Below, in pieces: positions 20,151-57,572 of a stretch of 64,000 nt of DNA. Source of the stretch: Plumapathes pennacea (lineage: Eukaryota > Cnidaria > Anthozoa > Antipatharia > Myriopathidae); contig OZ038463.1 in assembly GCA_964036295.1 (NCBI GenBank), positions 31,049,069-31,113,068 on the forward strand. The letters run 5' to 3'. Each line of letters starts with the position of its first letter. The first letter of the stretch is position 1. A program made the translations under genes and the position numbers. The notes under the pieces are model-generated. The model was given only the letters and a program-made list of their open reading frames with translations, ran no database searches and was not told the origin of the DNA.

Positions 20151-21202
20151 CTGAGACAAGATGTAGCGCTGAACCTGTGTGGAATAGACGAATGCTTTTT
20201 ACTGACAGTCTTTCAAAAGGCTTTAGAATTTACTGCCTGTATTAGTTGTTATTATGGTGCAGGTCAGCTAAACAGAGCCCATTGTCTAAATGTATTTGTG
20301 TTTTAAGTATGGTAGATTGAACTGAAAATGTTTCAGTTCAAATTTCCAACAGGCAAATTTGGATCGTGTGCGGCCGACACCCTGGTAACTTAAATTCTCA
20401 ATTGATTGCCTTAACCTTCCTTGGAAGGTGCCTGATTTCTCTCCAGAGGATTATGACTGAGATTTTGCTTAGATCGGAGGCTTTAACTGAATATCCCAGA
20501 TGGGATTCAAAATCAACCATTATGGCTAAAACTGCCTCTTTCTTAACCGTTATCAATCTACACCAATCGGCTTAATAAAAAATGATGCAGATAAAGCGAC
20601 CACCAAAAGAAACCAATGTTGATTATTCACAGAATAAATATCTTTTTAACGGTCTTGGATTGTAGGTTGTGGGTAACTCAGTTTAACTTACAAAAGACAT
20701 AATAATATCTGATATTTGTTGTTTGCGCAATTTCCTTAAGGTAGTGTTAAAACCACAAAAGTTCAGTAATATGCGGAATCTTGACTGCATATGTTATTCG
20801 TTTAATTAAAGTAGAAGTATGCTCTGAGTGGAAGCATCATACAGAGATGAAATAAGAATAACTACATTTAGTTGTTTTTTGTGTCAGGTTTTGGGTAATT
20901 TATCTGATAATTAATATTTGTATAAGTACCAAAGGGCACGATTACGAATTTTTTTATTTAGCTATTTCAAGATAATATAAACATAAAAACGTTGGGACAA
21001 TATCACGTTTCTTCCACACTGGGGAAACCAAGTGAACTACATATATGTGAGTTGAAAGGCGCGCATTGGGCTCTTTGCACGGAAACTGGCACGAGCTTCA
21101 AAGCGAGGCTGTCCTGGCATAATTGAGAAAGCTATCTCGGAAATTTGTGCACGTAACCCCACATGAAACAAGTGGATATCTTCTGAAGACGCCCTTGTAT
21201 TT
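20151..21202. other. Intron or 5' region of the mucin-like gene; nothing else recognised
   Basis: AT-rich. No exon with both splice sites and compatible phase was found on the minus strand. Confidence 0.4.
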
Positions 21203-38227: not shown

Positions 38228-38542
38228 TTACATTTTCATCACGATGTAGTTCCCAGGGACAGGTATGGTACCTTTAAAAACACATTCGCCCTGAACTTCC
38301 TCACAGTAGTTTATCTTTTTGCATTCACATGTACTACGTTGTAGGCCATTTAATGTGCCAGCCGCGGTTTGTACGCATATATTTTTGATTGTACATTTAT
38401 CTGGGACAATGGCAATAGGCCCCCTTTTTACGGAGTCTTGGTGCTTCACAGTGGGCATGTCTTCTTCAGCCAGTTTGCCATGGTCTTCCGATTGAATGAC
38501 CCTAAACAGGCGTTGGTTAGGGTAAGCTGAAGCAGCAGCGAT
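38228..38542 (-). CDS. Peptide gene A, exon 2
   Basis: Carries the end of the signal peptide, the propeptide (starting YPNQRLFRVIQ, ending DSVKR) and the mature cysteine-rich part. The acceptor is preceded by a pyrimidine-rich TTCTTCGTCGGTGCTC. Confidence 0.75.
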   Translation of the reverse strand: MAAASAYPNQRLFRVIQSEDHGKLAEEDMPTVKHQDSVKRGPIAIVPDKCTIKNICVQTAAGTLNGLQRSTCECKKINYCEEVQGECVFKGTIPVPGNYIVMKM

Positions 38543-38969
38543 CTTTATAGAGCACCGACGAAGAACATTAGTACCATGAATTTCACATTAGGATGTAATG
38601 GACAATGCAAGATATCGGAAATGTTGATAAATTTTAAAATTATATCCTATTTCTTGTCAGACTACGTATTTAAGAGAATACCAAAGTAGCACCTATGACG
38701 TCTCACGCTTTAGAGTTGTAAAATTATCTGTTAAACTTAGGTGTCAATTTGCTGATTGAAGATAAACACCGTCAAACTATTGATAAATTGGGCATTAACG
38801 TCCTTTTGACGTGAAAATAGATTCGTGGACAATCCTGCTTATATTTGGTAAAGTTTTCAGTTTATGCCGACTATTGGTATATGAAACTTTCAAGGAACTC
38901 AGTTCGGATGAAACAAAGAAAAAGACTACATACCAGAAATGTCAAAAACAGAATTGTCTTCAGCTTCAT
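38228..38969 (-). CDS. Secreted cysteine-rich peptide precursor, copy A (2 exons)
   Basis: Exon 1 (38934-38969) encodes MKLKTILFLTFL and ends at a GTATGT donor in phase 0. Exon 2 (38228-38542) enters after a CTATAAAG acceptor in phase 0 and runs 104 codons to TAA. Together they give an 18-residue signal peptide ending IAAASA and a propeptide of about 34 residues closed by a Lys-Arg site. A mature part of 64 residues follows, with six cysteines spaced C-x5-C-x15-C-x1-C-x5-C-x6-C. This is the layout of secreted host-defence, toxin-like or signalling peptides. I do not recognise the family, and the spacing differs from the eight-cysteine coral SCRiPs. It lies about 2 kb downstream of the SEFIR receptor on the same strand. 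Confidence 0.7.
38934..38969 (-). CDS. Peptide gene A, exon 1
   Basis: Twelve codons from ATG to a GTATGT donor. Identical at the protein level to the exon in unit B (54917-54952). Confidence 0.7.
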
Positions 38970-39020
38970 GGTCTTCCTTTACCGAGTGGATGTAGCGCGG
39001 CTCGATGAAGCTGTCGCACG

Positions 39021-39028
39021 TTATAAAG
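39021..39028 (-). promoter_or_regulatory. TATA-like box, peptide gene A
   Basis: CTTTATAA on the minus strand about 52-60 bases upstream of the start codon, conserved at the same spacing in unit B (about 55008). It would give a short leader. Confidence 0.4.
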
Positions 39029-39910
39029 GCACACAAAGTACCGCCCACAAACAGACAGACGCCATTAATTATCGAGGGTAAATCCCATCAATGCCTAACG
39101 TCACTGGTATCAACCATCACTACTATCACCATTTTACTGTAGCTTCATACGTGGGCAGCAAGAGTGGTGTCGTTGTAACGACAGTTGCAGGAGACTTCAT
39201 TTAAGACCTTTTACGCGCAGGCGGTAAACAAACTGGAGTGTTATTAGTGGTTTGCATGTGACGGCATCAAACATTATCTCGGAGGTTATGCATTCTGCAA
39301 AACCAATACGTTTGTATTTTCTAGAATACCATAGTTAAGCCTCCATGCAAAGTTTTGGAAAGATACGAAATTTCTATCAAGAATTATAGATTCGTGACTA
39401 GAAGGCCGTGTGCCACGCTTTCCGCCGCGGAAATAATGTTTGTGTGTGTTAATTCTGGAATCATTTAAAGAGTGGGTGGAAAATAATTCCAAGCAATACA
39501 GAATCAAATTAAGGTCCAAATCAACTTTAGTTCGTGCCGCATAAGAAAGGTCGCCATGTTGGTTTACTGAAGCTGTACACCAACAATGGCGGCTCCATAC
39601 AAAGTCCCAATAAATTTCGTCGAAAATTAGGTCTCCATAAACGCACAGCAAAGTGCGAAATTTCTCTATAATTTTGACTAGTGATGTATTTTCAATATAT
39701 CCATCGATTCGAGACATCAAACTATGTTTGGGATCAATAATTTAGAGGATACTTTTCCGATGCCGATCGTGCAAACCACCAATTGAATGACATGTACGTC
39801 ATGTGTCTACTAAGCAGGTGTTCATTGAAATGTATTAGTGAAAGGTCTAAGAAAAGGATTTTCTTCTCGCCACACAGGTGCACTATAATAGTGACATCAT
39901 TTTATCATTG

Positions 39911-40050
39911 CAATCAACTCTCTTTAAGGCGGACACCCTCAAGACTACACTTAGAGAGAGTTCATTTACGGAGAAACAATTGAAAATCGGCAAGGACCAA
40001 ACTCTGTATGCTGTCCGCTTTAAAGAGGTGTCCGCTTAGAGAGAGTTGAC
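39911..40050. mobile_element. MITE with CAGTCAACTCTCTTTAAG termini, unit A
   Basis: Termini CAATCAACTCTCTTTAAGG and GAGAGAGTTGAC are inverted, with GCGGACA/TGTCCGC just inside. The same element is in unit B at 55906-56055, so it predates the duplication. Confidence 0.65.
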
Positions 40051-40932
40051 TTTATTCCAATTTCCGTCCTGAACCGATCCTCCCTCATGCAGCGAAATCT
40101 TTTGGGAACGTCAAATGTATCAATCTGGAAAAATTGGGGAGCTGCAAATTAAGGTGACAGTCGACTTAAGAGAAGAACCAAGCTCGACTTTAAACCAAAT
40201 GACAGTGTATTTTCTCCAAAAAAGAAATAAAGTTGAATTTGTTTGGAGGTGGATGCTTGTATTTGCATGAAAATTTATATTTTCAGGATGAGTTTTCTTG
40301 TGTTTTTAAAGTAGTTGTTTATTTGCTCTTCGGACAACTTTCGGCGACTATTTATTTTATGGTTTCTTACATCTTACTGTCCACCATCTTGCTTTACACA
40401 CGTCTGACGTATCGCACCACGTGACCGATAAACCGCGCGTTTCAAACGGCCGCCAAAATTATGAGGGAACAAAACCGTTATTTGGGTTGAAGTTTATTAG
40501 AACCAGATTCGTTTATATTTCTTTCGGAAAGTGATTGTGATTGTGTTTATGCTAAAGGACGCATTGAAAGTACAAAATCTAACATAAACATTTGGTGACT
40601 GTTGCCATTTTATTAAGGTAATCTGATATCATAGTCGGCCTTTAACGTTAAAGTTAAACGAACTTGGAATTGAGAGCCTGATGTAAAATCCTATTGTTCT
40701 GGCCTCCGACATGGCCGACATTCCCACGATATGAAATAAGTGTCTTTTGTAGTTTTTGCAATTTAAGCGTAATTTTGGTAAAAAATATCAGTGACAATAT
40801 TACGGTGACTGTTTAGGCTAGCGTTTCGAACCTAAGGGGCGAAAGTTATAGGAAAGCTGTCATTAATCTTATACATCATGGGGAAGCAACTTAAAGATAA
40901 AAGTTTGTTTATGTTTCTGTTGTGCATTCACC

Positions 40933-41438
40933 TTAAACTTCTACGAAAACTTCTATTGGGGCAATCTCTGAAATGTCATTTAAACGCATGACTATTTTAT
41001 CACGATCTTGTGGCCAGCGGTATGTCACAACCGCCCATGGAGGCAAGTTCTGGGTATCCATTTTATCATCCAGCAACACACAAACGATCTTGGTGGCTGA
41101 CCGTGTGTTGCAATACATATATTGAAGAAGCTGCATCTCGTACCAAACTCGTTGCTCCTCATCTGTCAATCTTTGAGACGCGTCATCGTCATGAGTGTAC
41201 ATGGCGTTGTAACCAGGACTCAGGAACACCAGCACTTTGTCGGCTTTCTGGATCTGGCTACCAGCCCACCTCACATGCCCTTTGGAACAAATTTCTGGGG
41301 TTGCCATCTTGTCCATAATCATAGGATAACCCGCATGCTCTCTGAACCAGTTTACGATTGAAGCAATTTCGTCGATGTAATCTTCATTCTCTGGAAAATA
41401 GGACACCATGAAGGAACGTTCCTCGCACTTTGGAGCGG
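40933..41438 (-). CDS. Receptor A: SEFIR exon and stop
   Basis: An ATTACAG acceptor (phase 1) opens 168 codons to a TAA stop. The domain runs from about residue 7 (CEERSFMVSYFPENEDYI) through FREHAGYPMIMDKMA, SQIQKADKVLVFLSPGY and ATKIVCVLLDD. These correspond to the box-1-like start, the Asp-containing strand and the later strands of SEFIR/TIR folds. Copy B differs at only a few residues, a sign of constraint. Confidence 0.85.
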
Positions 41439-41620
41439 CTGTAATATAAACATGAATTGTGTTAATTTAGTGCGCTGTTCTAGAATAATAATAGCCGCAT
41501 ACTCATTCGTTTGGGAGCTGTACCTATTCCGGAATTTTTCAATTACTATTCTGTCAGTTTTTTTTCCTCCTGCAAGCGACCAGCTCTCTTAAAAGCGACC
41601 ACTTATCAAATGAACTGTAT

Positions 41621-41655
<35 letters not shown>

Positions 41656-44600
41656 ATCATACACATACCCAACCATCTTAAGAATAATCTTAAAATAGCA
41701 GTCTTACTTATCGCTGGATCTTGAATGAGATTTTTCCTCCAATTGTTTGCCACGTTGGGATCTGTGAAGAAAGTGCATAACGCAAATGAGTTCATCTGTG
41801 ACTACATATCGCTTAGTACTTAAATCGACTGCTCTTTACCTGCGCGCTCTACCAGACAAAGGAGAGGGGACAGTGGGTAGGAAATGGCGCGCGTCTGGAA
41901 CATAACTGTAAGTTCTGGGTTGGAGATAGGGTGGAAGTGAAGGTGGGGTGGGGGTGAGGACAAAGTGTCAATGATTAATGTTGTATTTTACCTTCGTGTG
42001 TGCCACTGGATTTGCGGCGTCTTTTCAGATATACATAGACTGTCAGTATCAGTGAGATAACTGTCAGACCTACTCCCAGAGTCATCACTACTGTGGTAAA
42101 TACTAAAAAATAATGCAGAAAAAGTTAGCTTACCAGTCAACTGTGATAGTAGATTAGATTTGACTTGATTCCGAGAAGTAGGATTCTTTTTTAAACTAAT
42201 TGCGCCTGTTGTTATGCTGTTTTTAACTAACATCCGCGGCATATTGCTGAATCAAACTCTAAATGCGGGGTTACTAAGTGTTTCATTAGATTAGTGTCAT
42301 GTGTTGGGAAATTTCCCGGGGAGATGGACTCACACTTAAAATTACGGGAACGCTTGTCGGGAATTTTCGTTTTGACCCCTGAGAGGTACTAAAACGGGCG
42401 TGGTTCGAGCTTATTTTGACTCATAAAAAGTATCAATAAAGCATACCAACAATTTACGGTTGCGATGCCTTTAAGCGCTTTGCCCCTTGCTGCTTTCAGA
42501 AGTTTATTTGACTGACACCCGGAAAAATTTAATTGATTATTTGCTGTGTGTAGCTGTACCTGTTGACGTTGTTGGTGTTGTTGATTTTTGCTCTTGAGTA
42601 AAGAAAGTGCTGCTCATATTTTTATCTGCGAAAGGAAGCATACTATAATATTAAACAGAAATTAATGCAATTGTTTAAGTTTTACTTTATTACTGCAAAG
42701 CTCACTCTCACTTTAATTCTCGGTCCGCAGTTCATACTGAATTAATTATACAGCTATTGCACTACTACGACTAATATACAATTAGATTATGAGCTTGAAA
42801 TTTCCATAAGGTGATAGTTGATAAGGGCGAAGCCTACAATCTTGGACAAAAGTGTTGACACATTCTCCCCTCCCCCCATTCAATGTTGATAAATCAATTA
42901 TTTAGCAACGATTTTCCGTCAAAGTCTTACCGGAACTCTTCCAAATTCAAGCTACAACATTGATACGGGGAGGGGGGGGGGGGGGGGGGGGGGGGGGGTT
43001 ATTAAAAGCAGTTTTCTTTGGAACTGGTGACTCACAGCATGGTAGTTTTGACAAAAGTACGACATTTAAAGCATGTGTCAACACATTTTGTCCGGGATTG
43101 TAGTTTTCATTTATATAAACACACACACACACAAAATCTCTGTTGTTACGCTCTTTTCCAGAAGACCTTAACTAATGTCCGGGGCATATTGCTGAATCAA
43201 ACTCAAAATGCGGGGTTACTAAGTGCTTCATTCAGATTAGTGTCATGTGTTGGGAAATTTGTGGAGTTTAATTGATTATTTGCTGTTTTTAGCTGTTACC
43301 TATTGACGTTATTGATGTTGTTGGTATTTGCACTTCAGTAGTTGTTTGAGCTGCGAAAAGAAACATAGTATATTATTAAACGGAAATTAATGCAACTGCT
43401 TAAATTACTTCATTACTGCAAAGCTCACTCTCACTGGAGCTCTCGATCAAGAACATCCAAATCTGATGAAAAGTGGTTATTGAGGGGGCTGATACTTTAA
43501 GATTCATGTGAAATTGCAGTAATTTATTGTTAGGAATAAGTTCCCGCGCATGCTGTTTAGTGCACTGGAGCTACTGTGGTGTTGTACCTGTTGTTGTTGT
43601 TGTTGTTGTTGTTGACGATTTTTCTGTTAGAGGACGCGGCGTACTGCTTACGTTTTGACCTGAGGAAGCACATAAACCATTATATTATATCATTAAATGG
43701 AACTTGTTGTGATATCAGTGTATATATGTCGTGCTACCAAGAACATCCACATAATTAATGTTCACAGGTACTAACATTTAAAGGACCCAAAAGGGAATAT
43801 AAAGCGCACAGCAGTTATGCAAAGCCACAGCCCGGTATTAAAGGTTTGAATAGTTGATGAAATTGAAAAACTAAGAAAATTACTGCAGTGACTGCGATTC
43901 TTGCCGCTAGGAAACACCAGGGGCAACAATATCTGATTAATCTCGTTTAGTTGGTCTGTACGGGAAAAATATCGGTCCTAAAGGTCTTGGTAGACCCCGC
44001 AGCGGCGAACCTAATTATCCACATCTTTTACGTGTTCTTTCAAACCATTCCCCGCGTGGTTCTATAAAAGATGATGCATTTATGATGATGATGCATTCAT
44101 ATAACGCAAATTCTAAGTGTATATATACAAATGCGCTTTCCAGTGATCTCTTAATTAATGATATGGTAATGGAGGACAGTTCACAGCACCGGGGAAATTC
44201 CCCTGCCCTTTTCAGCCTTCCCTAACCCTCATATTGGGTTAGTGAAGTTGAGAGACTAGGTAAACGGCTTAATGTCCCCACCCAAGGACGGAGACTCAGA
44301 GAGGAACACATTCCTTCCCACTTACGGCGCCGTGGTCAGATCCCAAAACCGGGAATCAAACCCGGGCCGCATTGGTGAAAGGCCGGCGTGCTAACCGCTC
44401 GGCCGCCTGAAGATCCACTAAAACATAGGAAGCCGATGCGTGATTTGTGTTCACGGATTATGTGATAAGGTGGATAGTACGCGCAGTCTGATTGGTAAAC
44501 GTGCGTGCATTATAACTCAACATACGCATGCGCGTGTCAATTTGACGTCAGCTTGCTTAAAATTCGTTTTTTTCTTTGTTGTTTTTTGTTTTACAAAGTT

Positions 44601-47600
44601 TCGTTTGCCTTATCTTATAAAAGCAATAAAGCACTTTTTAGCGGACGTATATTTGGTTATAGATGCGCTTGGGAATTTGAACGGACACTCGAGAAGTTTG
44701 GAGAAGCACTCGGCGGCCTCGTGCTTCTTCTAACTTCTCTGGTGATCGTTCAAATTCCCGCGTGCACGCTGACGCGTTATTGAGTTATAGATGCTTGCTT
44801 TATTTCTTTAATAGAGCACGTGTCAGCACGAGAGAAGTAATATGGAGAAGCACGACACTCGTGTTCTGTCAAATTCTCAAGTGCTTCTATAACTCAATAT
44901 ATAGCACGTTGACAAAGTGTTTTATTTCTTTTATCCCCGAGCGAAGCGAGGGTAATAATCACGACGCTAATGCAGTAGTAACGCCTTATTTGGAGACTCC
45001 AAGCGGGTCACCATCTCGCAATGAGTTTGTTCGTGTGTCAGTCTGTCAGTCTGGCGTACGACCTCGTCCCCAGGGCCATCCGCGTTAAGCAACGACAAAG
45101 GATCGATCACGTGTCCCGCTGTAGTTTACTGATACTGAATGAGATTGAACGATCGAAGCAACAAATATCGTATAAACTGCGTTCACGAATTTGAAAACTG
45201 AAAAACTTGAAACACAAAAGTCTCGTGAAACTCGTCGTCAAAAGAGAAGGGAGCAAGCATCGTGAAACAATCGAACAGCACCAAATCCGTCTCGACAAAA
45301 GACGACAATCCTATTATGACCAAAAGCATCATGAACAGAAGCGTGCTTAAGAAACGACTCCGCAAAGGAAACAGCGCATGAATAGCGGCATGAACACAAA
45401 CGGGCCGAAGAAAAGGCTTCTCAAAGAGAAGAGCGATTGAAAGCGAATCGGGAACTTCAGCAGCAAAGGCGGGCCGAAGAAATGACTCCGCAAAGACAAC
45501 AGCGCATGAATGCCGATCAAAAGCGGCATAAACACAAACGGGCCGAAGAAAAGACTCCTCAAAGAGAACAGCGATTGAAAGCGAATCGGGAACTTCAGCA
45601 TGCCAGCAAAGGCGAGCCGAAAAAACGACTCCGCAAAGAAAACACCGCATGAATGACGATCGAAAGCGACATGAACAGAAGCGGGTAACGCAGACAACTC
45701 CGCAAAGCGAACAGCGCTTGAGAGCAAATCGGGAGCTTCAGCAAACAACAAAGGTTAGTCAGTGGAAATCGAACAATCACCGTGACAAATATATTCTACC
45801 CGTATCTTGTAACCCGATCGCTTCAAGAATGTATTAAAATCTGTATGCTGATCATTTTCCCTCGAAGTATTGTTTTATTGCGCTTCTGTCGCCAGTTTCG
45901 GCTACCGTATTCGCTCAGAGCAATCCCAACTTGGAGTCTTAAATGATTTAGTCAGATGTCTTTTTTTTCAAGACTAAAACTGTAACAAATGCTGTAATCT
46001 GACACGCGGTGATTGCAGCGAGAATCTTTCACAAGCACTTTGAAGTATGACTAGGTCTGAAGCCCATGTATAATTTGAAGTAAACCGTGCGAGTTTTGCT
46101 TTGATTCTGGGAGAAATTATGCTGTTTTTAGCGGGTTCACATACAAAACAATTCGAGCTCATTAAATATGCATGCATTAGTCTGGTGCATGAGTAAAAAA
46201 AAATCGCACAGGAAGCCTATTTAATTCTACTGCTTGTGAATTTAAAACTGGAAAATCAGTATTCTATTTTTACCGTACTACGGCGGCCGACCAACTTCAA
46301 ATTTTGAGAACGTGCCTGGCAGACTGTGTGAATTAATTTGACGTGCCAACCGTGGGAAATACGTAGAGCGTCACGCAAAAATCGACTCTTTTTCAACGCA
46401 AAAGTATAACACACACCATTCTTTTTCTCCTTCCTTTGCGTGTAGCACTTTACTTCGAAGAAAAGATTGAGTCAACATTTCGGTAAAACATTAAGGCTGC
46501 TCTTGTTGAGCAGTACCAAAGTAAAATCAATGGCAGAGCGAGGGGGTAACTGCGATTATCGTATTTCTAGTAAGATAAGACAAACGAAACTTTGCAAAAA
46601 AAAAAAAAAAAAAAACAAGAAAAAGAACCCGAGTTTGACGCAGGATGACGTCAAATATACGCGCGTGCTATGTTGAATTATAATGCACGCGAAATTCGTC
46701 AGCGTTCACCAATCGGATCGCGCGTATTATCCACTTTATCTTATAATTTATTTATTTAGTTGCTCGGGACCTGACGAGAGTAGGTCCGCAGAAGTTGAGC
46801 GTGAGTCCTGTTACGTGAAATAATAAGTTATCCCAAGACGGTATTCGTTATGTCCAATGCAGAAACGACATGGTATATAATATTTGATTGTTGTTTCAAC
46901 GAATAAATTTAAATTAAGGATTTTTAATTATGCTCAAATTGTATTAAATAAATCTTGCCATAGAAATCTTACACAAAATGAACTAGAAAATCAAAACACA
47001 AAAGCGTGTATTGCTACTCCCATTTTCTTCATAAGTATCTTACCTGAAACTGTGCAGGGGACTTGATCAATTTGATTTCCTATAGACCATGTAAATACAA
47101 CATGTACTTTAAAATACCGTCATACGACACCGCGGAAATAAGTTTTTCGGCCATGCAGTTACTTTGATTTTAAGTCAGCGGTTATTGCACAAAACCGTGG
47201 ATTCAGTTGCAGATTTTGAAGTTAAATGAAATGCTCGTAAAACTTCAAGAAAAATGAGGCTTGCACACGATGTGAAATTTTTACTCGAATTATGAGAAGT
47301 TAGATAGCCATGGCGACAAACGCTGACCAAAGGAAGTGACGTCATTAAAGTATTTCCGCGGTGTCCCGTCATGCAGTATAACGAAGTCTATACTGGAACA
47401 TGTCTTTTACATTTGGGCGTTCAAGGATAAGAGAGGAAGGGTGTAATTGGGGGGTTCGGAATGGATGTTGAAGGGGGCAGTGAGGGGAATGAGATACCTA
47501 AATCTCATCCGTGATAACTTGGCATGAACATCTGAGCCGGTTAAGCGAAACCGCCACCCGTCGTTTGCACGATGGAGAGGTATGATGTTACGTGTACGAC

Positions 47601-49812
47601 CGACGGTTCAGATGGTTAAGTTCTGCGCTACGTCCTTACAAACGCACCATGCCTTTTGGCTATCCTAGTACATTAAGTGAAATAATTATATCACACTTAC
47701 CTGAATCCAACAGCCGAAAAGTTCCAGGATAATAAGAGCGTGAGTTTTTTTGGAAGAGGATAAGCGTCAACCTTAAGAGCGATCAAAAGTATTCCAGTTA
47801 CGCGAACTAAACCAAACAAGGTCGCAAATGTAAAGATGTGTTTTTGAAAAGTAGACTAAGGGGAAGCATCCTCGTTCTCAGGCTCTTTTCCCTCCTCGCC
47901 TTAGATATACAAGAACTAAGTAAATAATAATGTGTAAAATTATGATAATTTAGAGCAAATCGAGGGCAATTAACATCGAGCATAATTTAAGAAAGAGGGT
48001 AGCATTGTATTTTCAGTATACAAACTAAGAAAGTACGATTCGCATGACGTAAAATATGGATATTCGGCCATACTATGTTTTTCATTTTAGACGAGTACCG
48101 AAGACCGAAGTGTGATTCTGCAAAAAAAAAAAAAAAAAGGATAACATCCGATGATTGAGAACAACTGTGATGTCACAAAATATATAGTATACACGTTAGC
48201 TCATATCTTCGTTCCTTTATCCCCTCTCTATCAACTCTTTTCCCCACATCACGTATACTATACTCTATACTAGACCTGAGGATCCCTTGTGTGTATTTTA
48301 GGGAGTAGACCAGACGGTCAGATTATCTCGCGGTGAATTTGTCAGATACTGAGTATATTATTAGCCTAAAATCTCATAGGAGTAACTGACCACTAAATTT
48401 TAATTTTTCGTACTATTGAGTGCAAGTACAGACTTCAAATCGAATCTCTCGTTTGCCGTCGTCCTGCTCAAAAAAAAAAAAAAAAAAAAAGAGAGTCCAA
48501 TTATTTTTTGTTCAGTAATCGTCATTTAATCTTCCTTACGGTAGTTGTGTTGACTTATCATAATTTCTCAAAACTAAACATCCATAACCTTTTTACCTAC
48601 CATTGTCAATAAAGCACAGCTGTAATTTTCATTCTTGTCAAAACTCCATCGAATCATATATTGGTTCCACATTCTTGGATTGGCTGGGACAAAAGAAAAA
48701 GAGAGAGCAGATAATCGTTTTTACAAAATCATCAACTATATAGAAACTTGCAACGGTTAGAAAAGAAGAGTTCAACGAGCAAATCATGATTACTTGTTTA
48801 TGATGTGACTATAAATGTTCTTTGGGACTCTCCTCATTGTAAGCACGCGTGCTAATGTCAATTGGCAACTTGTTTTCGGACACTATTGTCGTGACATGGA
48901 AAAGCTACAGAAATTGAACGCGATTTTTGATTGCTGTGGTAACATAATTGCACTCAGTGCATGTAATATTTTAAATTACATTCAGTTCAAATTAACGATT
49001 GACTTGCTTGCTCACAGCCAAATCAGATTTTTGTATAGTCATATGAGATTTGTAATCATGCAAGTGATTAAGTAATTAGACGACCGCAAAGCTGTGAGTC
49101 TGACTTAATTTGACTTTTGTCTTTGGGAGTCTGTGACGTAAATTTTAAAATTAGGGGGATATTTCAAGTAAACTGTGTACTGTAATTTGCGAGTCTTGCT
49201 ATTCTGCTATTGATATTGCTATATCAGATTTTGATACAACTCACATTTATAAGGAATCCACTTGATCAATACATGACTTTTGTTGACAAAATACACCTCA
49301 GTTTTTTGCGTCAGTGGGTTGAAATATTCACTTGATGTATAGCTATAGTCTCTGCGTTTGAATGGGGGTTGACCACAGGAGCCTAAAAATATATTGATTA
49401 TAATAAAAATCATTAGATAGAGCACAAAGCAGTTCAATGTTATAAATTATGCAAGAACATGATACCTAACATTCTAGTTTACCACTGGAAATTGTGGTTT
49501 TTCGGATAACTGTTGAATCATTTCATTTATCCAAAAATGCTTGGAAGCATCCTTAGACATTCAGGAATAATGAAAAGAAAAAAGAAAGAAAAGAAGAAGC
49601 GATTGCGATTACGATTGCGACTTTCCTACACAAGCAATCGGTTATGGTGTTTATTAGTGCAGTTAATTGATATATTTTTCAAGGTGAACAAAACCCTCTC
49701 TAAGCTCTGCAATCCTTGCTGCACTTACAGTTTGTAATGTGAATAATATTAAGCTCAAGGAATGCAATTCATTACCAGCACACTGCTCTTTTTTTGAAAA
49801 AGCCACGCTTGC
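40933..49812 (-). CDS. SEFIR-domain (IL-17-receptor-like) membrane receptor, copy A
   Basis: Eleven exons could be chained on the minus strand: 49776-49812, 49245-49382, 48597-48683, 47701-47806, 47044-47079, 43588-43659, 43300-43350, 42560-42625, 41992-42102, 41708-41761 and 40933-41438. Every internal junction is phase 1. Order: a short ectodomain of about 125 residues, probably fibronectin-III-like (KSHVLIKW, QYMIRWSFD), then a Ser/Thr-rich stalk from three mini-exons. A membrane helix, a short linker and a C-terminal SEFIR domain follow. SEFIR domains recruit Act1-type adaptors in IL-17 signalling; the protein ends right after the domain, without the extended tail of vertebrate receptors. 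Exon 47701-47806 has one extra base relative to copy B and would break the frame unless skipped. The first exon is uncertain. Confidence 0.75.
41624..41653. repeat. AC dinucleotide microsatellite, unit A
   Basis: About 15 AC units in an intron of receptor A. The copy in unit B (57576-57628) has about 26 units. Confidence 0.95.
41708..41761 (-). CDS. Receptor A: juxtamembrane cytoplasmic exon
   Basis: 54 bases, phase 1 to 1, CTTCACAG acceptor and GTAAGA donor. Encodes PNVANNWRKNLIQDPAI, conserved in copy B except for two residues. Confidence 0.75.
   Translation of the reverse strand: MPTWQTIGGKISFKIQR
41992..42102 (-). CDS. Receptor A: membrane-helix exon
   Basis: 111 bases, phase 1 to 1. 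Encodes a hydrophobic segment (VVMTLGVGLTVISLILTVYV) followed by the basic YLKRRRKSS stop-transfer sequence. This fixes the orientation with SEFIR inside the cell. Confidence 0.85.
42560..42625 (-). CDS. Receptor A: stalk mini-exon 3
   Basis: 66 bases, phase 1 to 1, TTTCGCAG acceptor and GTACAG donor. Encodes KNMSSTFFTQEQKSTTPTTS, Ser/Thr-rich. Equivalent to 58915-58980 in unit B. Confidence 0.7.
42972..42998. repeat. Poly-G tract in intron of receptor A
   Basis: 27 consecutive G, not present at the matching place in unit B. Confidence 0.9.
43300..43350 (-). CDS. Receptor A: stalk mini-exon 2
   Basis: 51 bases, phase 1 to 1, TTTTCGCAG acceptor and GTAACA donor. Encodes QTTTEVQIPTTSITSI. Related exons in unit B are 58323-58370 and the defective 59544-59609. 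Confidence 0.7.
43588..43659 (-). CDS. Receptor A: stalk mini-exon 1 with Thr run
   Basis: 72 bases, phase 1 to 1, TTCCTCAG acceptor and GTACAA donor. Encodes QNVSSTPRPLTEKSS then eight Thr from an ACA (GTT on plus) triplet run. Unit B has five Thr here (60188-60250). Confidence 0.75.
44059..44432 (-). mobile_element. tRNA-derived SINE inserted in unit A only
   Basis: Unit B reads uninterrupted across the site (GCGTG then CCGACGCGTGATTTG at about 60681), giving a 374-base insertion. On the minus strand it has an A box GGCCGAGCGG (plus 44395-44404) and a B box GGTTTGATTCC (plus 44352-44362). An unrelated body follows, ending in an ATGATG-rich stretch. Target duplications are not clear. Confidence 0.7.
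44934..46570 (+). mobile_element. Helitron copy 4, insertion absent from unit B
   Basis: It starts TCCCCGAGCGAAGCG and ends ATTATCGTATTTCTAG, 1,637 bases. The left flank ends TTTTA and the right flank begins TAAGATAAG. Unit B reads TTTTATAAGATAAA at 61177-61190, so the insertion lies exactly between A and T with no duplication. It carries the STPR-type coding remnant at 45190-45765 and no helicase. Confidence 0.9.
45190..45765 (+). pseudogene. STPR-like repeat remnant in Helitron copy 4
   Basis: Several frames each encode parts of a highly charged repeat protein. The longest (45437-45652) contains RAEEMTPQRQQRM, RAEEKTPQREQRLKANRELQ and similar units with 23-residue spacing. Frame changes between segments show decay. 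Its start (TEKLETQKSRETRRQKRRE-like) is homologous to 1536-2015. Confidence 0.5.
47044..47079 (-). CDS. Receptor A: short ectodomain exon
   Basis: 36 bases, phase 1 to 1, CTATAG acceptor and GTAAGA donor. Encodes NQIDQVPCTVS with one cysteine. Conserved in unit B at 61666-61701. Confidence 0.65.
47701..47806 (-). CDS. Receptor A: ectodomain exon with a one-base frameshift
   Basis: The acceptor TTTGGTTTAG and donor GTAAGT are conserved with copy B, where the exon is 105 bases. Here it is 106, because a T run at 47745-47751 has seven T instead of six (62665-62670 in B). Read from the acceptor, the frame is VRVTGILLIALKVDAYPLPK and then shifts. The frame needed for the next exon (ending YYPGTFRLLDS) is present after the run. 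Skipping the exon would keep phase 1. Confidence 0.65.
48597..48683 (-). CDS. Receptor A: ectodomain exon, fibronectin-like strand
   Basis: 87 bases, phase 1 to 1, TTGTCCCAG acceptor. Encodes NPRMWNQYMIRWSFDKNENY and then SCALLTMV. Of two overlapping donors, GTAG|GTAAAA is chosen because it keeps phase 1. Confidence 0.7.
49245..49382 (-). CDS. Receptor A: N-terminal ectodomain exon
   Basis: 138 bases, phase 1 to 1, ATATTTTTAG acceptor and GTGAGT donor. Encodes a segment with SCGQPPFKRRDYSYTSSEYF and KSHVLIKWIPYK. Asn-Lys-Ser is a possible glycosylation site. Confidence 0.7.
49776..49812 (-). CDS. Receptor A: possible second exon
   Basis: 37 bases between a very strong pyrimidine tract ending TTTTTTCAG and a GTAATG donor. 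Encodes ASVAFSKKEQCA, phase 0 in and phase 1 out, which fits the next exon. Unit B's equivalent lies outside the window. Confidence 0.5.
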
Positions 49813-51420
49813 CTGAAAAAAAAAAAGAAAAAAAAAAGTGATTTCGTAGTTAAATTTTGTAGTTTCTGTTAACTTGGTTAACAGTAAAATGTAGGATTTG
49901 AAAGTTCACAGTTCTTTGCACACTGATGTAAGTTTTTTGACATAAAAAAATGACAGGTCAATATTTGTTTATTTGTATAGCGGTATCCATTCAGACCTTA
50001 GTTTGTCAGACCCCCGGGATGTCTGAACAGCCAAAAAGCTTTGTTCGACAGGAATTGGAAACCCGGCACCGCATAGTGTATTACTAAATCCGTCTTGCCG
50101 CCCTTCTGCTCTGTGGCTCTTTGCGGTTTGACCGGAGAAATGACTAAATTTCTTGTCGGTTTGGAAAAACTGACAGAAGCAAACACTGCTTATATTAGGA
50201 ACTCGTTAGACAAGAAGCCATTGCAAAATATCTTTCTGTGGAACCGGAGGCGGCTTAAACCTGCAGAGCAAGGGCGCGCGTATCACCCTCCGCTGGATGA
50301 CGAATCCTGCCCTGCCAGTGCCTTCCACCCACATACGCTAAAATTTGTCCCCTGCCATTCCTTCAAACCCACAGTCTACTTCTCCTTCCGATCCCGCTAA
50401 ACAAAGCGTATTCATAATCAGGAGGTCTTATTTCACCACTGACAATTCCCGTATACTAATCGAAAACCCCAAGAAAAAGTCAATGGTGGGGTAAAGTTCC
50501 TCGGGAACAGCCCGCAAACGCAAAGTGTAACCACAGCTTATGGTTTGAAAGCTCTGGCGGCCTATCAGACATATTTTTTATTTTCTTTCAAATGACTTGA
50601 TAAGAAGCCAGAAAGTTCGAGCGAGGATATACACAAGCAATATTTTGGGAACTGTATCTCGCTGGGAAGTGCAGAAGAGCATGAGGACCTCGACTTCCTT
50701 GATCCCGGACAAGCGTTTTAGTTGGTCTTATATGGACTCACTGCAGCTTGTTGGCCATGAGTTTAGAGAATTTGGTCAATACCGAGAGATGCGGAAAAAA
50801 ATTATGTGTTGCTATTAATTTGTCTCATGCAGTACGGAGTATACTGCCGGTAACCGGTAACACTCATACAAACAGATTATGAACGCAAATCAAAACAGAC
50901 GCCTGCAGTAGGTAAGTCACACAAATGCGTGACTGCATGATTACTTGCGATGTTTAGAAGAATCATTACCAAGAACAAGGTAGACATGTCTGGAGCTTCA
51001 ACAGCACGTACCGATCACTCCTTCTGCGTATTGCAACTGAACGGTACTGATACGGTGTGTTTGGTTTTGATGTCCTTCAGGTTAACACGCAATACGTCTA
51101 GAATGTCCGGATTACCCACGCAGAAGGCGGACATTGACATCAATCGGGTTTTTAGTTTGTTCTAGAGACTTTGTATCCTTATAGAAAAATACATTCCCTT
51201 ATTGAAGCAGGATTTACTGCGTTTCTAAGGGTGCTTTTGAGCAAGTTAAAACAAAAAAATTCTTTCATCATTTTATCGCGAAATAACGTCCGAGATAACA
51301 GTCATTGGTCTTCCACCAGATACTGCGAAGCTTTGACCCGTACTGTCATGGAAGTTAAAACTATTTATGCATAGATAATAATAGTGAGAAAAGAAAAACT
51401 CTTGTTTCAGTTGGCTGACC
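49813..51420. other. 5' region of receptor A; start exon not settled
   Basis: One candidate first exon is 50970-50987 on the minus strand (MSTLFL, GTAATG donor, phase 0). It would join the exon at 49776 to make a rather short hydrophobic leader. No better candidate was found, and the rest is without recognisable features. Confidence 0.25.
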
Positions 51421-51931
51421 AATAAGTTCTGACCAATAAGTTCACGCGGAAGATCTAAGGCGACGGTTACTTTCCTGCAGATGGAGTTTCGGTCACTACA
51501 GGGAGCTGGAAATCCGATGAAATAAATATTGCTGCGGACAGTCTCCTACGAATGCGACGAAGGGTGAGTACCGAGAAAAGCAATAAATTTGCGGCGGCAA
51601 TATACGCAATTCCTTTTACCAAAGCTACGAGTATATATCTCTTCCGGCAAACAGGCTTTTTCGCATTTTCCGGTTTAAATTGTGATTGACTTGTCCGGTT
51701 GGATTAGCCAATCAGAATGTTTCGTTTCTCCACGATCGGGTACTAAGCTTTTGTACATTATGCTAACATATTTTAGCATTTTAATGTGTTAAATAGTTTA
51801 GACACAATTAAAATTACAGCAACATTAAACGCAATTCCTTTTACCAAAGCTGGTTTATTGAGTTTCACTAAGTAAAAACACAAAGTATAAAAAGTAAATA
51901 GAAATACAGTAAGTGTAGTAAGTAAAGAGAA
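51421..51931. repeat. Fragment of the segmental-duplication sequence
   Basis: Matches about 11570-12005 and 32255-32720 (AAGATCTAAGGCGACG, ATGCGACGAAGGGTGAGTAC and others). It ends exactly where unit B begins, so the A/B junction lies in this third, partial copy. Confidence 0.75.
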
Positions 51932-52037
51932 ATTACGTAAGAATTCTATGCAGCAACAGACAGATAATTTACTGATTTGCTGCTACCGAACTGTTTACAG
52001 CGACCAGACGCTAACTTTTCCATACCTTACTCAGCTA

Positions 52038-52211
52038 CAGTCGAATTTCGTTATTTCGAACTCGGTTAATTCGAAGTTCCCGTTGTTTCGAACTCGAGCC
52101 GAATCCTCTAGGCTTTATTTTTTCAATCATTTACTATCGGCTACTTCGAAACCCCGCTATTTCGAACTTTTTTCATGTCCCGTGCTACTTCGAAATAGCG
52201 GGGTTCGACTG
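52038..52211. mobile_element. pogo-like MITE with TA duplication, unit B
   Basis: Termini CAGTCGAATTTCGTTATTTC and AAATAGCGGGGTTCGACTG are flanked by TA on both sides. This is the better preserved copy of 35701-35837. Confidence 0.8.
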
Positions 52212-54211
52212 TATTTCTTCTCGGAAGTCGTAAACGTAAACAGGAATTTAATTCGACTCCGCACGGCTGCTAGAGAGTGAATACTATTCAGGAAGCGATT
52301 AAACCTGCTAATAACTTTGTTGCGTCACTACAATGACATAGCCCGGCGCCCCAAAGGCGCTAGAAATCGAGGCGCACACAATACCAGTTTTAATACCAGT
52401 GGGCTTGTTTACATAGATTGATGGCAATGTTCACGCGTGTAGGCTGAACAATAATTACACACGAGCCCACCAGCTATGCTCTATTGTATATCATGTATAA
52501 ATAAAGCATTCATTGTTCATTCATTCGATGCTACAGAGAAGTGGGCAAACAAAGAAAGTGCATCTTGCAGGGAGATAGGCATCATGCAGAGGCTTGATAA
52601 AGCACTAAATTAATGTAGGGGTTATACTTAGTAAACATGTTGTGTAGGAGGAATAAGAAAACACCATATTGCATTAGGAATTAGGTGATTGAAACCGGTA
52701 GTCATTCGTACGATGTAACTGTAGGCTCTGATAGGTATCGAGTTTGGGCCGTTGGTCTGGAATAGAGTAGGAGATTTTGATATTTGATGTGAAAGAGGGT
52801 CAAAAACTGTCAAAAGTCGCAAAATTTGGTCTGAAAAACGACGTCTTTTCTTGAATTTATTGACCTCCAATACCAGGTGGAATAGCGCGTCGCACGTTGA
52901 TTAATAATGTCTGTCATGTCATGTATTACCGCTCAAATTGCCATTCTTTTTCGGAATAAAGCAGCATATATAGTGAAGGTTGTAGAGATTGGCCATAATT
53001 TAGCACTCTTAGTTTTCTGTCTTCTGTCCATACCCTCAACGATGATGATAAAAATAATGAACAGGAACGAGATCCCATATTTTCATTTACTTGGGGAGGA
53101 ATCATAAAGTTCTTGGCTTATTGTTAAAATTACGTTTTCTACTGCTTCCATGAAGCTCTGGGCATTATTATGCTAGCATGTGTATAATAGACAAATATAG
53201 GACATATGGTGCAACTGATCCGTGCGGTATAACTGGGCTTTAATTGATGTGACGAGTCACTGACCCGCCGTTTTCCTTTCTCCGGCATAATAAAACAGCT
53301 TGCTTGTAAAGTAAAGATTAGAGAAAATGTGCATAATTTAGCACTTGCACGTTTTTTGTCTTTTTAATTTTTAATTTTTGTTATTTTGTTATTTTGTTTT
53401 TTTGTCTTTTTAATTTGTTATGTTTAGTAAGAAGATGAACCATCATGGTTTTCGTCGCGTACGGCCGTGTAGTACTAAACTTAGCACACCGGCTATGTTG
53501 CAATATGCTTGATTCTAGAGCGAAGTATTATTTTCGTTTGACGATTCTCAACTCTGCAGAGTTTCTAAAATATTTTTCATTTATGCTTTCTGGTTGAAAA
53601 TTAACTCGGTACCTATAGTATTCTTGTATGTGGATATGGTAATATATTATTCTCTGAACAAAGAGGAAGAAGAACAGATGGCAGCTAAACGTTCATATCT
53701 TTTATGGTAACGCTGAATAACTGTAATTTATTGTAAGTTAAAGACTGCACAGTACTTATCTTTTGCAGACGTATATTTCCCAACATCAGTTACAAAAGCA
53801 TTATCTTTAGTGCTCTTTTCGTGATCAGCTAACTGAAACCCCGCAGTTAATTCATATTAACGTTGTTTATACGACCTAACCTAATGTCGCTCCGATATCA
53901 AGCCCGGCGAGGAATTTTATTCAGCAAGATAAGAATTTTTAAGTCCATGTCAAAATCCACAGTCTTATCGGTTAAAATAATTTCTTTCATCCACTCCTTC
54001 TGTGCAATGTGCGATTTTCTTCTAATCATATGCAAAATGGTTGAGAGGTTTATTTCTTTTGGAGAAGCCATCTGTTTCACTAGCGAAAAGCGAGGAAGCT
54101 CGACGCAGGGAAACGAGCGAGCAGCACGAGTCGTGTTTACTTGAGAAGTCAAGCTCGCACCCGAATGACAAAGAAAACACGCAGAATATTTATAATAGTA
54201 TTTATTACTTG

Positions 54212-54523
54212 CTATTCGTCCTTCACGATGTAGTACTTAGAGAAAGATATGGCACTTGGTGTAATAAAACATTCGCCGTCAAATTTCATGCAGTAGCTTA
54301 CTTGTTTGCATATACAGGAGCTAGTTGTTAAGCCTGTTCCTAATGTTTTAGGCGTCGTTTCTACGCATATATTTTTATCTGTACATTTAGGTGGTTGTGG
54401 CGCCCTTTTTACGGAGTCTTGGTGCTTCACAATGGGCATGTCTTCTTCAGCCAGTTCGCCGTGGTCTTCCGATTGAATGACCCTAAACAGGCGTTGGTTA
54501 GGGTAAGCTGTAGCAGCAGTGAT
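54212..54523 (-). CDS. Peptide gene B, exon 2
   Basis: Same acceptor (TTGCTCTATAAAG) and propeptide as copy A. The mature segment is rewritten between the cysteines and one codon shorter. Confidence 0.75.
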   Translation of the reverse strand: MTAATAYPNQRLFRVIQSEDHGELAEEDMPIVKHQDSVKRAPQPPKCTDKNICVETTPKTLGTGLTTSSCICKQVSYCMKFDGECFITPSAISFSKYYIVKDE

Positions 54524-54952
54524 CTTTATAGAGCAACGACGAAGAACATTAGTACCATGAATTTCACATTAGGAATGTAATGGACAATGCAAGATATCGG
54601 ACATGTTGATAAATTATAAAATTATATCCTATTTATTGTCAAACTACGTATTTAAGAGAATACCAAAGTAGCACCTATGACATCTCACGCTTTAGAGTTG
54701 TAAAATTATTTGTTAAACTTAGGTGACAATTTGCTGATTGAAGATTAACACCGTCAAACTAATGATAAATTGCGCATTAACGTCCATTTGACGTGAAAAT
54801 AGATCCGTGGACAATCCTGGCTATATTTGGTACAGTTGTCCATATTATGTCAACTATTGGTATATGAAGCTTTCAAAGAATTCAGTTCGGAAGAAACAAA
54901 GAAAAAGACTACGTACCAGAAATGTCAAAAACAGAATTGTCTTCAGCTTCAT
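54212..54952 (-). CDS. Secreted cysteine-rich peptide precursor, copy B (2 exons)
   Basis: Exon 1 (54917-54952) encodes MKLKTILFLTFL with a GTACGT donor. Exon 2 (54212-54523) runs 103 codons to TAG. Signal and propeptide (52 residues, Lys-Arg at the end) differ from copy A at only four positions. The 63-residue mature part keeps six cysteines (C-x5-C-x16-C-x1-C-x5-C-x6-C) but fewer than half of the other residues. TATA-like box and AATAAA positions are conserved. The family is not recognised; a host-defence, toxin-like or signalling peptide is possible. Confidence 0.7.
54917..54952 (-). CDS. Peptide gene B, exon 1
   Basis: Twelve codons from ATG to a GTACGT donor, phase 0. Protein identical to exon 1 of copy A. 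Confidence 0.7.
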
Positions 54953-56891: not shown

Positions 56892-57391
56892 TTACACGAA
56901 AACTTCTACTGGGGCAATCTCTGAAGTGTCATTCAAACGCATGACTATTTTATCTCGATCTTGTGGCCAGCGGTATGTCACAACCGCCCATGGAGGCAAG
57001 TTCTGGGTATCCATTTTATCATCCAGCAACACACAAACGATCTTAGTGGCTGACCGTGTGTTGCAATACATATATTGAAGAAGCTGCATCTCGTACCAAA
57101 CTCGTTGCTTCTCATCTGTCAATCTTTGAGACACGTCATCGTCATGAGTGTACATGGCGTTGTAACCAGGACTCAGGAACACCAGCACTTTGTCGGCTTT
57201 CTGGATCTGGCTACCAGCCCACCTCACATGCCCTTTGGAACAAATTTCTGGGGTTGCCATCTTGTCCATAATCATAGGATAACCCGCATGCTCTCTGAAC
57301 CAGTTTACGATTGAAGCAATTTCGTCGATGTAATCTTCATTCTCTGGATAATAGGACACCATGAAGGAACGTTCCTCACACTTTGCAGCGG
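56892..57391 (-). CDS. Receptor B: SEFIR exon and stop
   Basis: 166 codons including TAA, ATTACAG acceptor, phase 1. The same motifs as copy A (FREHAGYPMIMDKMA, KADKVLVFLSPGY, KIVCVLLDD). Confidence 0.85.
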
Positions 57392-57572
57392 CTGTAATAT
57401 AAACATGAATTGTGTTAATTAGTGCGCTATTCTAGAATAATAGTAGCCGCATACTCATTCGCTTATGAGTTATACCTATTCCGGAAATATTCAATTACTA
57501 TTCTGTCAGTTTTTTCTTTCTCCCGTAAGCGACCACCTCTCTTTAAAGCGACCACTTATCAATGAACTGTAT

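What the first reader, a model, noticed from the sequence alone, without database searches (positions are those of the whole stretch)
38228..54952. Two cysteine-rich peptide genes with a conserved leader and a rewritten mature part
Seen: signal and propeptide differ at 4 of 52 residues and the flanking non-coding DNA is very similar, yet the mature segments share mainly the six cysteines and fewer than half of the residues. This localised divergence inside a recent duplication is the pattern of diversifying selection (or of gene conversion limited to the leader), as in venom and antimicrobial peptide families.
Basis: partly seen in the sequence, partly recalled or inferred. Interest (0 to 1): 0.85.

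Follow-up and report, generated by a model that had tools for sequence, protein, structure and literature searches.

The report
Fast-diversifying secreted cysteine-rich peptide gene array
Two look-alike genes in this (probably animal) genome belong to a larger group of probably secreted cysteine-rich peptides whose active parts have been rewritten by unusually strong natural selection, and several of them sit next to a gene for an immune-type receptor, which suggests a recognition or defence system.

Summary
Confirmed, and larger than reported. A (38228-38969, -) and B (54212-54952, -) differ at 4 of 52 leader residues and 26/391 intron bases, but 59/186 mature-part bases. The genome holds at least 22 loci: 15 read intact with one plan (36-nt exon 1, phase-0 intron, propeptide, cysteine-framed mature part), 1 has a GC donor, 6 are broken or fragments. 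A second subfamily repeats the pattern more cleanly: pairs U-V, U-Y, V-Y have 1.2-2.4% intron divergence, mature dN 0.28-0.34, dS 0.03-0.06; mean mature omega over 8 copies is 5.6 (p 8e-8), with silent change at intron level, so hypermutation is unnecessary. A-B alone does not show this: mature dS 0.50, dN 0.43, so its mature part looks older than its flanks; exchange between copies is detected in subfamily 2. All 10 SEFIR (IL-17-receptor-type) exons found in this cluster have family sequence 2.0-9.2 kb downstream, same strand (with 12, 21, 24, 89). No relative was found in Pfam, NCBIfam, PDB or the large protein collection. Function is inferred.

The parts
38934..38969 (-). Gene A exon 1 (12 codons, start of signal peptide)
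   Evidence: open frame, GT donor; a 36-nt exon 1 recurs in the other intact copies
38543..38933 (-). Gene A intron (391 nt, phase 0)
38423..38542 (-). Gene A exon 2, rest of signal peptide and propeptide ending Lys-Arg
38228..38422 (-). Gene A mature six-cysteine part with stop
   Evidence: most divergent window in the A-F comparison
54917..54952 (-). Gene B exon 1
54524..54916 (-). Gene B intron (393 nt)
54404..54523 (-). Gene B exon 2, rest of signal peptide and propeptide ending Lys-Arg
54212..54403 (-). Gene B mature six-cysteine part with stop
40933..41466 (-). SEFIR-domain exon of the receptor gene upstream of A
   Evidence: PF08357 47.1 bits, cut-off 23; omega 0.24 over four units for 40939-41415
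41992..42102 (-). Transmembrane exon of the same receptor gene
   Evidence: splice sites and frame kept in 3 of 3 other units; hydrophobic stretch read by eye
48597..48683 (-). Predicted extracellular exon of the receptor
   Evidence: frame and splice sites kept in 3 of 3 other units; pN/pS 0.9; inferred
49245..49382 (-). Predicted extracellular exon of the receptor
   Evidence: frame and splice sites kept in 3 of 3 other units; pN/pS 2.1; inferred
50949..50987 (-). Candidate signal-peptide exon of the receptor
   Evidence: conserved block in four units, with GC instead of GT at the donor in A; read by eye, low confidence
56892..57431 (-). SEFIR-domain exon of the receptor gene upstream of B
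   Evidence: PF08357 45.4 bits
57947..58054 (-). Transmembrane exon of the B-unit receptor

Best explanation
A and B are two of at least 15 intact genes of an undescribed family of probably secreted, propeptide-bearing cysteine-rich peptides; 13 of the 15 lie in one cluster of about 0.5 Mb on contig C2, two on C11. SHOWN: the family multiplies by tandem duplication, often of a unit that carries a SEFIR receptor gene and a peptide gene. Six cysteines are kept, while the residues between them change under very strong positive selection (mean omega about 6-12 over the mature part in subfamily 2) at a normal silent rate. Upstream DNA, signal peptide and propeptide stay alike because copies are young and, in subfamily 2 at least, exchange sequence. 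INFERRED: the leader directs secretion, a convertase cuts at the dibasic site, disulphides fold a constant scaffold with variable loops, and the loops face a fast-changing partner. An immune or recognition role, as ligand of the linked SEFIR receptor or as effector expressed with it, is my first choice (about 0.4), then venom or defensive toxin (0.3), then antimicrobial peptide (0.25).
For: Site and mean-omega models; U/V/Y pairs intron 2-4 of 168 against mature 28-31 of 135-141; codon positions 1:2:3 = 38:42:8 summed over these three pairs, which also speaks for a translated frame; 0 silent variants in 11 invariant codons where hypermutation predicts 6.7-8.1 and the intron rate 1.9; exchange in subfamily 2; same exon plan in 5 lineages; 10 of 10 SEFIR exons found in the cluster with downstream family sequence (with 12, 21, 24, 89), one of them (F) only a leaderless fragment; SEFIR omega 0.24.
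Against: A-B have dN about equal to dS, and a single omega for subfamily 1 is 1.19, not different from 1 (p 0.58; C, D, E alone 2.3, p 0.095). Subfamily 1 has more silent change in the mature part than its introns predict (4 seen, 1.2 expected, p 0.03; neutral tree length 0.585 against 0.161). The subfamily-2 leader also has omega above 1 (3.2, p 0.007) and few silent single-base changes (4 to 29, p 0.06), so the signal is not confined to the mature part. Recombination and multi-nucleotide mutations can inflate the likelihood tests. Six of 22 loci are broken or fragments. Not every peptide has a receptor (no SEFIR hit on C11 or near C2:8.79 Mb), and the 2 places sampled of 6 in the other SEFIR cluster lacked the motif. 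Receptor ectodomain omega 2.4 is not significant (p 0.09). No expression data.
Confidence: 0.8

Rival explanations
1. Local hypermutation of the mature exon, with purifying selection only at cysteines.
For: In subfamily 1 silent divergence of the mature part is also high (A-B dS 0.50, intron 0.066); several conotoxin superfamilies show raised Dn and Ds in the mature exon (PMC3862624, passages seen).
Against: Subfamily 2 silent sites are not raised: U/V/Y dS 0.03-0.06, 0 of 11 invariant codons vary; its neutral tree length 0.25-0.29 is below that of the intron, 0.365. In subfamily 1 the invariant codons show 4 silent variants where hypermutation predicts about 14.
Confidence: 0.05
2. Old mature parts with recently homogenised leader, intron and flanks: conversion tracts overwrote everything but the mature part, with no selection needed on the latter.
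For: A-B: leader and intron 4-7%, mature dS 0.50; mosaic copy Q; tails and 3' UTRs group differently from introns.
Against: Does not explain dN far above dS in subfamily 2 or 1:35 synonymous to replacement changes in young pairs, nor D-E with 8 replacement and 0 silent changes up to the sixth cysteine. It probably contributes, above all in subfamily 1.
Confidence: 0.12
3. The peptides are venom or defensive toxins and the SEFIR linkage is incidental.
For: Leader-conserved, mature-hypervariable cysteine-framed design as in conotoxins (PMC3862624); peptides at C2:8.79 Mb and on C11 have no SEFIR hit nearby.
Against: 10 of 10 linkage in the cluster over about five diverged lineages; no match to a known family in the 6 precursors scanned with Pfam, the 3 with NCBIfam, or the PDB searches.
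Confidence: 0.3
4. The peptides are antimicrobial effectors under immune control.
For: 10 of 11 mature peptides have a positive net charge; amphipathic-looking C-terminal tails in subfamily 2 and the plus-strand copies (by eye); immune-type receptor neighbour.
Against: The charge is far from constant, -1 to +9.
Confidence: 0.25

Closest known systems
Conotoxin gene superfamilies
   Same: Conserved signal peptide, very diverse mature part holding most positively selected sites, introns conserved within a superfamily (PMC3862624, passages seen including part of the abstract)
   Different: There Ds rises with Dn in the mature exon of five superfamilies, and most have three exons with introns over 3 kb; here exon 1 is 36 nt, introns are 167-617 nt, and silent sites are not raised in subfamily 2; no sequence relation found
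Cnidarian SCRiP peptides
   Same: Small secreted cysteine-rich peptides, some with convertase sites, one subfamily under positive selection
   Different: SCRiPs have eight cysteines with three together near the C terminus and a highest subfamily mean omega of 1.30 (PMC10892658, passages seen); here six (two members seven) and omega 5.6
Brassica SCR/SP11 with receptor SRK
   Same: Variable cysteine-rich peptide gene physically linked to its membrane receptor gene (PMC8709392, passages seen)
   Different: Plant kinase receptor and allelic S-locus; here SEFIR receptor and tandem paralogues; binding and allelism untested
IL-17 / IL-17 receptor (SEFIR) signalling
   Same: Receptor-type gene with SEFIR intracellular domain (role of the domain recalled)
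   Different: The linked peptides scanned match no Pfam family, so they are not recognisable IL-17 ligands

Membership tests
Conotoxin superfamilies | Conserved signal peptide and propeptide with hypervariable cysteine-framed mature part | tested here: met
Conotoxin superfamilies | Both Dn and Ds raised in the mature exon | tested here: inconclusive
   subfamily 2: dN raised, dS at intron level; subfamily 1 does show raised dS
Conotoxin superfamilies | Sequence homology to a known superfamily | tested here: not met
   no Pfam (6 precursors) or NCBIfam (3) match above threshold, no PDB match beyond one chance hit at E 0.32; profile searches of the large protein set 0 hits
SCRiP | Eight-cysteine framework with three adjacent cysteines | tested here: not met
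   six cysteines in the mature part of 13 of 15 intact members, seven in the other two; no three adjacent
SCR/SP11-SRK type pair | Peptide gene physically linked to a membrane receptor gene | tested here: met
   10 of 10 SEFIR exons found in the cluster (with 12, 21, 24, 89), one with only a fragment; transmembrane exon recognised in 4 of the 6 SEFIR units of the fetched region
SCR/SP11-SRK type pair | Receptor ectodomain hypervariable and matched to the peptide | tested here: inconclusive
   two predicted ectodomain exons together omega 2.4, p 0.09; singly pN/pS 2.1 and 0.9
SCR/SP11-SRK type pair | Allelic polymorphism and cognate binding | not testable with these tools
   one genome only, no binding data
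Cationic antimicrobial peptides | Conserved net positive charge | tested here: inconclusive
   10 of 11 positive (+1 to +9), one -1
IL-17 cytokines | IL-17 domain | tested here: not met
   no Pfam family above cut-off in 6 of 15 intact precursors scanned, one chance match at E 0.14

The most novel reading that the evidence does not exclude
A linked ligand-receptor recognition system, in all likelihood of an animal: tandem units each pairing a SEFIR receptor with its own hypervariable cysteine-rich ligand, in which peptide loops (omega 6-12) and receptor ectodomain (omega about 2.4, not yet significant) change together while the intracellular SEFIR domain is conserved (omega 0.24).
Probability: 0.2. 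Interest if true: 0.9.

Novelty: new variant of a known kind. Interest (0 to 1): 0.64.

Why it matters
The cluster offers young copies with almost identical introns, leaders and flanks, so selection, mutation rate and exchange can be told apart inside one gene, a question debated for venom peptides (recalled). A mean omega of 6-12 over a whole domain with normal silent divergence is, as far as I know, extreme; the one figure I looked up for comparison is 1.30 for the fastest SCRiP subfamily. If the peptides bind the linked receptors, this would be a diversifying ligand-receptor system of a kind best known from plants.

Tried and rejected
Hypermutation: rejected for subfamily 2. Protection of cysteine codons, as once proposed for conotoxins (recalled): not needed; cysteine codons are invariant in 9 of 9 subfamily-2 copies and at 5 of 6 places in subfamily 1, but few silent changes are expected there at the intron rate. 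Second A-B hot spot at 50540-50780: read as non-coding misalignment. Structure: AlphaFold2 on mature A with two sequences gave mean pLDDT 43.9, useless, so no fold search was made. Naming the organism: the GFP family gave no match, but its controls did not ring either; the innexin search did not complete; paper searches by assembly size failed. Receptor ectodomain by tblastx between subfamilies: only SEFIR is recognisable there, the other matches being short pieces, many with stops. First M2a fit of the subfamily-2 leader was stuck in a local optimum and was refitted with several starts. A fourth conserved candidate exon of the receptor (49729-49812; pN/pS 1.05) was left out of the ectodomain omega. 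I dropped W from the likelihood and single-base tests because it equals V in the mature part; T (GC donor) and Z (one base lost in exon 1) were included in the eight-copy tests and left out in the six-copy test P,Q,R,U,V,Y, which still gives omega 7.2, p 1.6e-6. S, X, F, G and the C2:31.88-Mb fragment were left out of all codon tests, as were the three plus-strand members.

Full report
Observation. A: exon 1 38934-38969, exon 2 38228-38542; B: exon 1 54917-54952, exon 2 54212-54523; both on the minus strand, with GT-AG introns of 391 and 393 nt and open precursors of 116 and 115 residues. Signal plus propeptide differ at 4 of 52 residues and end in Lys-Arg; the mature parts share six cysteines and 43% identity. 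A-B K2P distance is 0.070 in the intron, 0.043 in the exon-2 leader, 0.414 in the mature part, 0.070 upstream and 0.104 in the 3' 500 bases. In 141-bp windows over the duplicated stretch (1140 windows, median 7.3%) the mature part reaches 33%; one other hot spot, up to 36%, is an indel-rich stretch that I read as non-coding.

The family. The window lies at C2:31049069-31113068 of an unnamed 290-Mb genome in 24 contigs. DNA and protein searches and the fetched neighbourhood give at least 22 loci; the tool calls its counts lower bounds. Subfamily 1: A, B, C, D, E. Subfamily 2 (leader beginning MKLGTILL and, in exon 2, IW.A.AVPN): P, Q, R, U, Y in the same cluster, V and W on C11. Three diverged members lie on the plus strand at C2:31473194-31473904, 31515093-31515801 and 31550894-31551903. 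These 15 read intact; exon 1 of the first plus-strand member was picked out by eye from the sequence printed. T (C2:8.79 Mb) has a GC donor. Six are broken or fragments: Z lost one base in exon 1, S and X have stops in frame, F, G and the C2:31.88-Mb piece lack the leader, G with a stop as well. All 15 share a 36-nt exon 1 ending at a phase-0 intron. The three plus-strand members are related to the others only weakly by sequence (E 2e-5 between two of them; 0.015 to 0.1 from these two to R and P; 0.07 from the third to S). Thirteen of the 15 have six cysteines in the mature part; the plus-strand members at 31473194 and 31550894 have a seventh. In 254 kb of six-frame translation the six-cysteine spacing motif hit 9 times, all family members; two of the three plus-strand members match it, the one at 31550894 does not because its last loop is longer.

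Selection, mutation and exchange. In subfamily 2 the pairs U-V, U-Y and V-Y differ at 2, 2 and 4 of 168 intron bases, 0-2 of 36 exon-1 bases and 3-5 of 165 leader bases, but at 28 of 141, 28 of 135 and 31 of 135 mature bases. By codon the mature dN is 0.28-0.34 and dS 0.03-0.06. Differences fall on codon positions 1, 2, 3 as 38, 42, 8, summed over the three pairs, as expected of a translated frame. For eight copies a single omega is 5.6 (better than 1 at p 8e-8; grid values 3-12 lie within 1.92 log units), and M2a beats M1a at p 1.5e-10 with 78% of codons at omega 9. Triplets, which need no topology, give omega 12 (U,V,Y p 6e-5; P,Q,R p 0.001), and six copies without T and Z give 7.2, p 1.6e-6. 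To avoid trees and multiple hits I counted codons with one changed base in the close pairs P-R, U-V and D-E: 1 synonymous, 35 replacement, neutral expectation 25%, p 5e-4. The same count on the leader as a control gave 4 to 29 in subfamily 2 (p 0.06) and 4 to 7 in subfamily 1 (p 0.9); the subfamily-2 leader also has omega 3.2 (p 0.007), so replacement bias there is not confined to the mature part, though total change is far lower. The neutral tree length of the mature part, 0.25-0.29, does not exceed that of the intron, 0.365, and 11 invariant codons show 0 silent variants where hypermutation predicts 6.7-8.1 and the intron rate 1.9.

Subfamily 1 is less simple. M2a beats M1a (p 1.5e-5; 43% of codons at omega 9.7), and D-E have 8 replacement and 0 silent changes up to the sixth cysteine. 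But a single omega does not differ from 1 (1.19, p 0.58), A-B have dN 0.43 and dS 0.50 against intron 0.066, and the neutral tree length of the mature part, 0.585, exceeds that of the intron, 0.161. Exchange between copies is the likely reason. In subfamily 2 neighbouring sites agree more than permuted ones over the whole gene (0 of 1000 permutations) and within the mature part (p 0.015-0.05); in subfamily 1 p is 0.06 and 0.33-0.44. Copy Q is like R in upstream part, intron and leader (9/500, 2/167, 1/165 differences) but groups with U and V in tail and 3' UTR (support 86).

Receptor linkage. The exon at 40933-41466 and its copy at 56892-57431 encode a SEFIR domain above Pfam's cut-off; a transmembrane exon lies upstream in 4 of the 6 units of the fetched region. 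The genome search found 16 SEFIR exons, all on C2: 10 at 31.09-31.55 Mb and 6 at 35.80-35.87 Mb. Each of the 10 has family sequence 2.0-9.2 kb downstream on the same strand, including three where the whole order is on the plus strand: partners A, B, F (a leaderless fragment), E with D, Q, R, U and the three plus-strand members (positions). Tandem copies are not independent, so this amounts to about five lineages keeping the order. In the other cluster I could sample part of the downstream stretch at 2 of 6 places, and neither had the motif. No SEFIR hit lies on C11 or near C2:8.79 Mb, where V, W and T are. Over units A, B, F and E the SEFIR part has omega 0.24 (p 1e-4 against 1), the transmembrane exon 1.1, and two predicted extracellular exons together 2.4 (p 0.09; singly pN/pS 2.1 and 0.9).

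What is known. No Pfam family in 6 precursors and no NCBIfam family in 3 (two sub-threshold chance matches), no PDB relative (one chance match at E 0.32), and no hit at E up to 10 in the large protein collection with two family alignments (198 and 314 candidates). The design resembles conotoxins (PMC3862624, passages), where Dn and Ds both rise in the mature exon of five superfamilies, and SCRiPs, which have eight cysteines (PMC10892658, passages). Linkage of a variable cysteine-rich peptide to a receptor recalls Brassica SCR and SRK (PMC8709392, passages). A search for at least three of SEFIR, cysteine-rich peptide, gene cluster, secreted peptide and tandem duplication found 67 papers; none of the 10 listed holds the word SEFIR. 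That is no proof of absence from print.

Limits. No transcripts, one genome, unnamed species (animal nature inferred from the SEFIR domain, recalled, and the gene structure), ectodomain exons predicted from conservation only, codon alignments of 43-48 codons. Secretion, cleavage and disulphides are inferred from sequence.

Noticed in passing
window 18766-20229 (-) and C2:31039865-31045993 (-): Serine/threonine-rich repeat frames ending in a transmembrane-like segment (487 and 2043 aa), mucin-like, in two copies.
   Followed up: partly
C2:31.00-31.03 Mb (upstream of the window; L025-L027): Several long plus-strand open frames rich in cysteine, possibly a second cysteine-rich gene group near the array.
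   Followed up: no
C11:8211649-8213308 (-) and 8250268-8251927 (+) (L042, L041): Copies V and W are nearly identical and in opposite orientation about 39 kb apart.
   Followed up: no
C2:31127605-31127829, 31142845-31143068, 31879074-31879156: Three leaderless fragments of subfamily 1 start at nearly the same propeptide codon, as if one truncated piece had been copied around.
   Followed up: partly
C2:35.80-35.87 Mb: A second cluster of six SEFIR exons; two sampled downstream stretches had no six-cysteine motif.
   Followed up: partly
window 42972-42998: Run of 27 G in the receptor gene region.
   Followed up: no
C2:31159376-31160260 (L013): Open frame that looks, by eye, like a retrotransposon polymerase inside the array; family not tested.
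   Followed up: no
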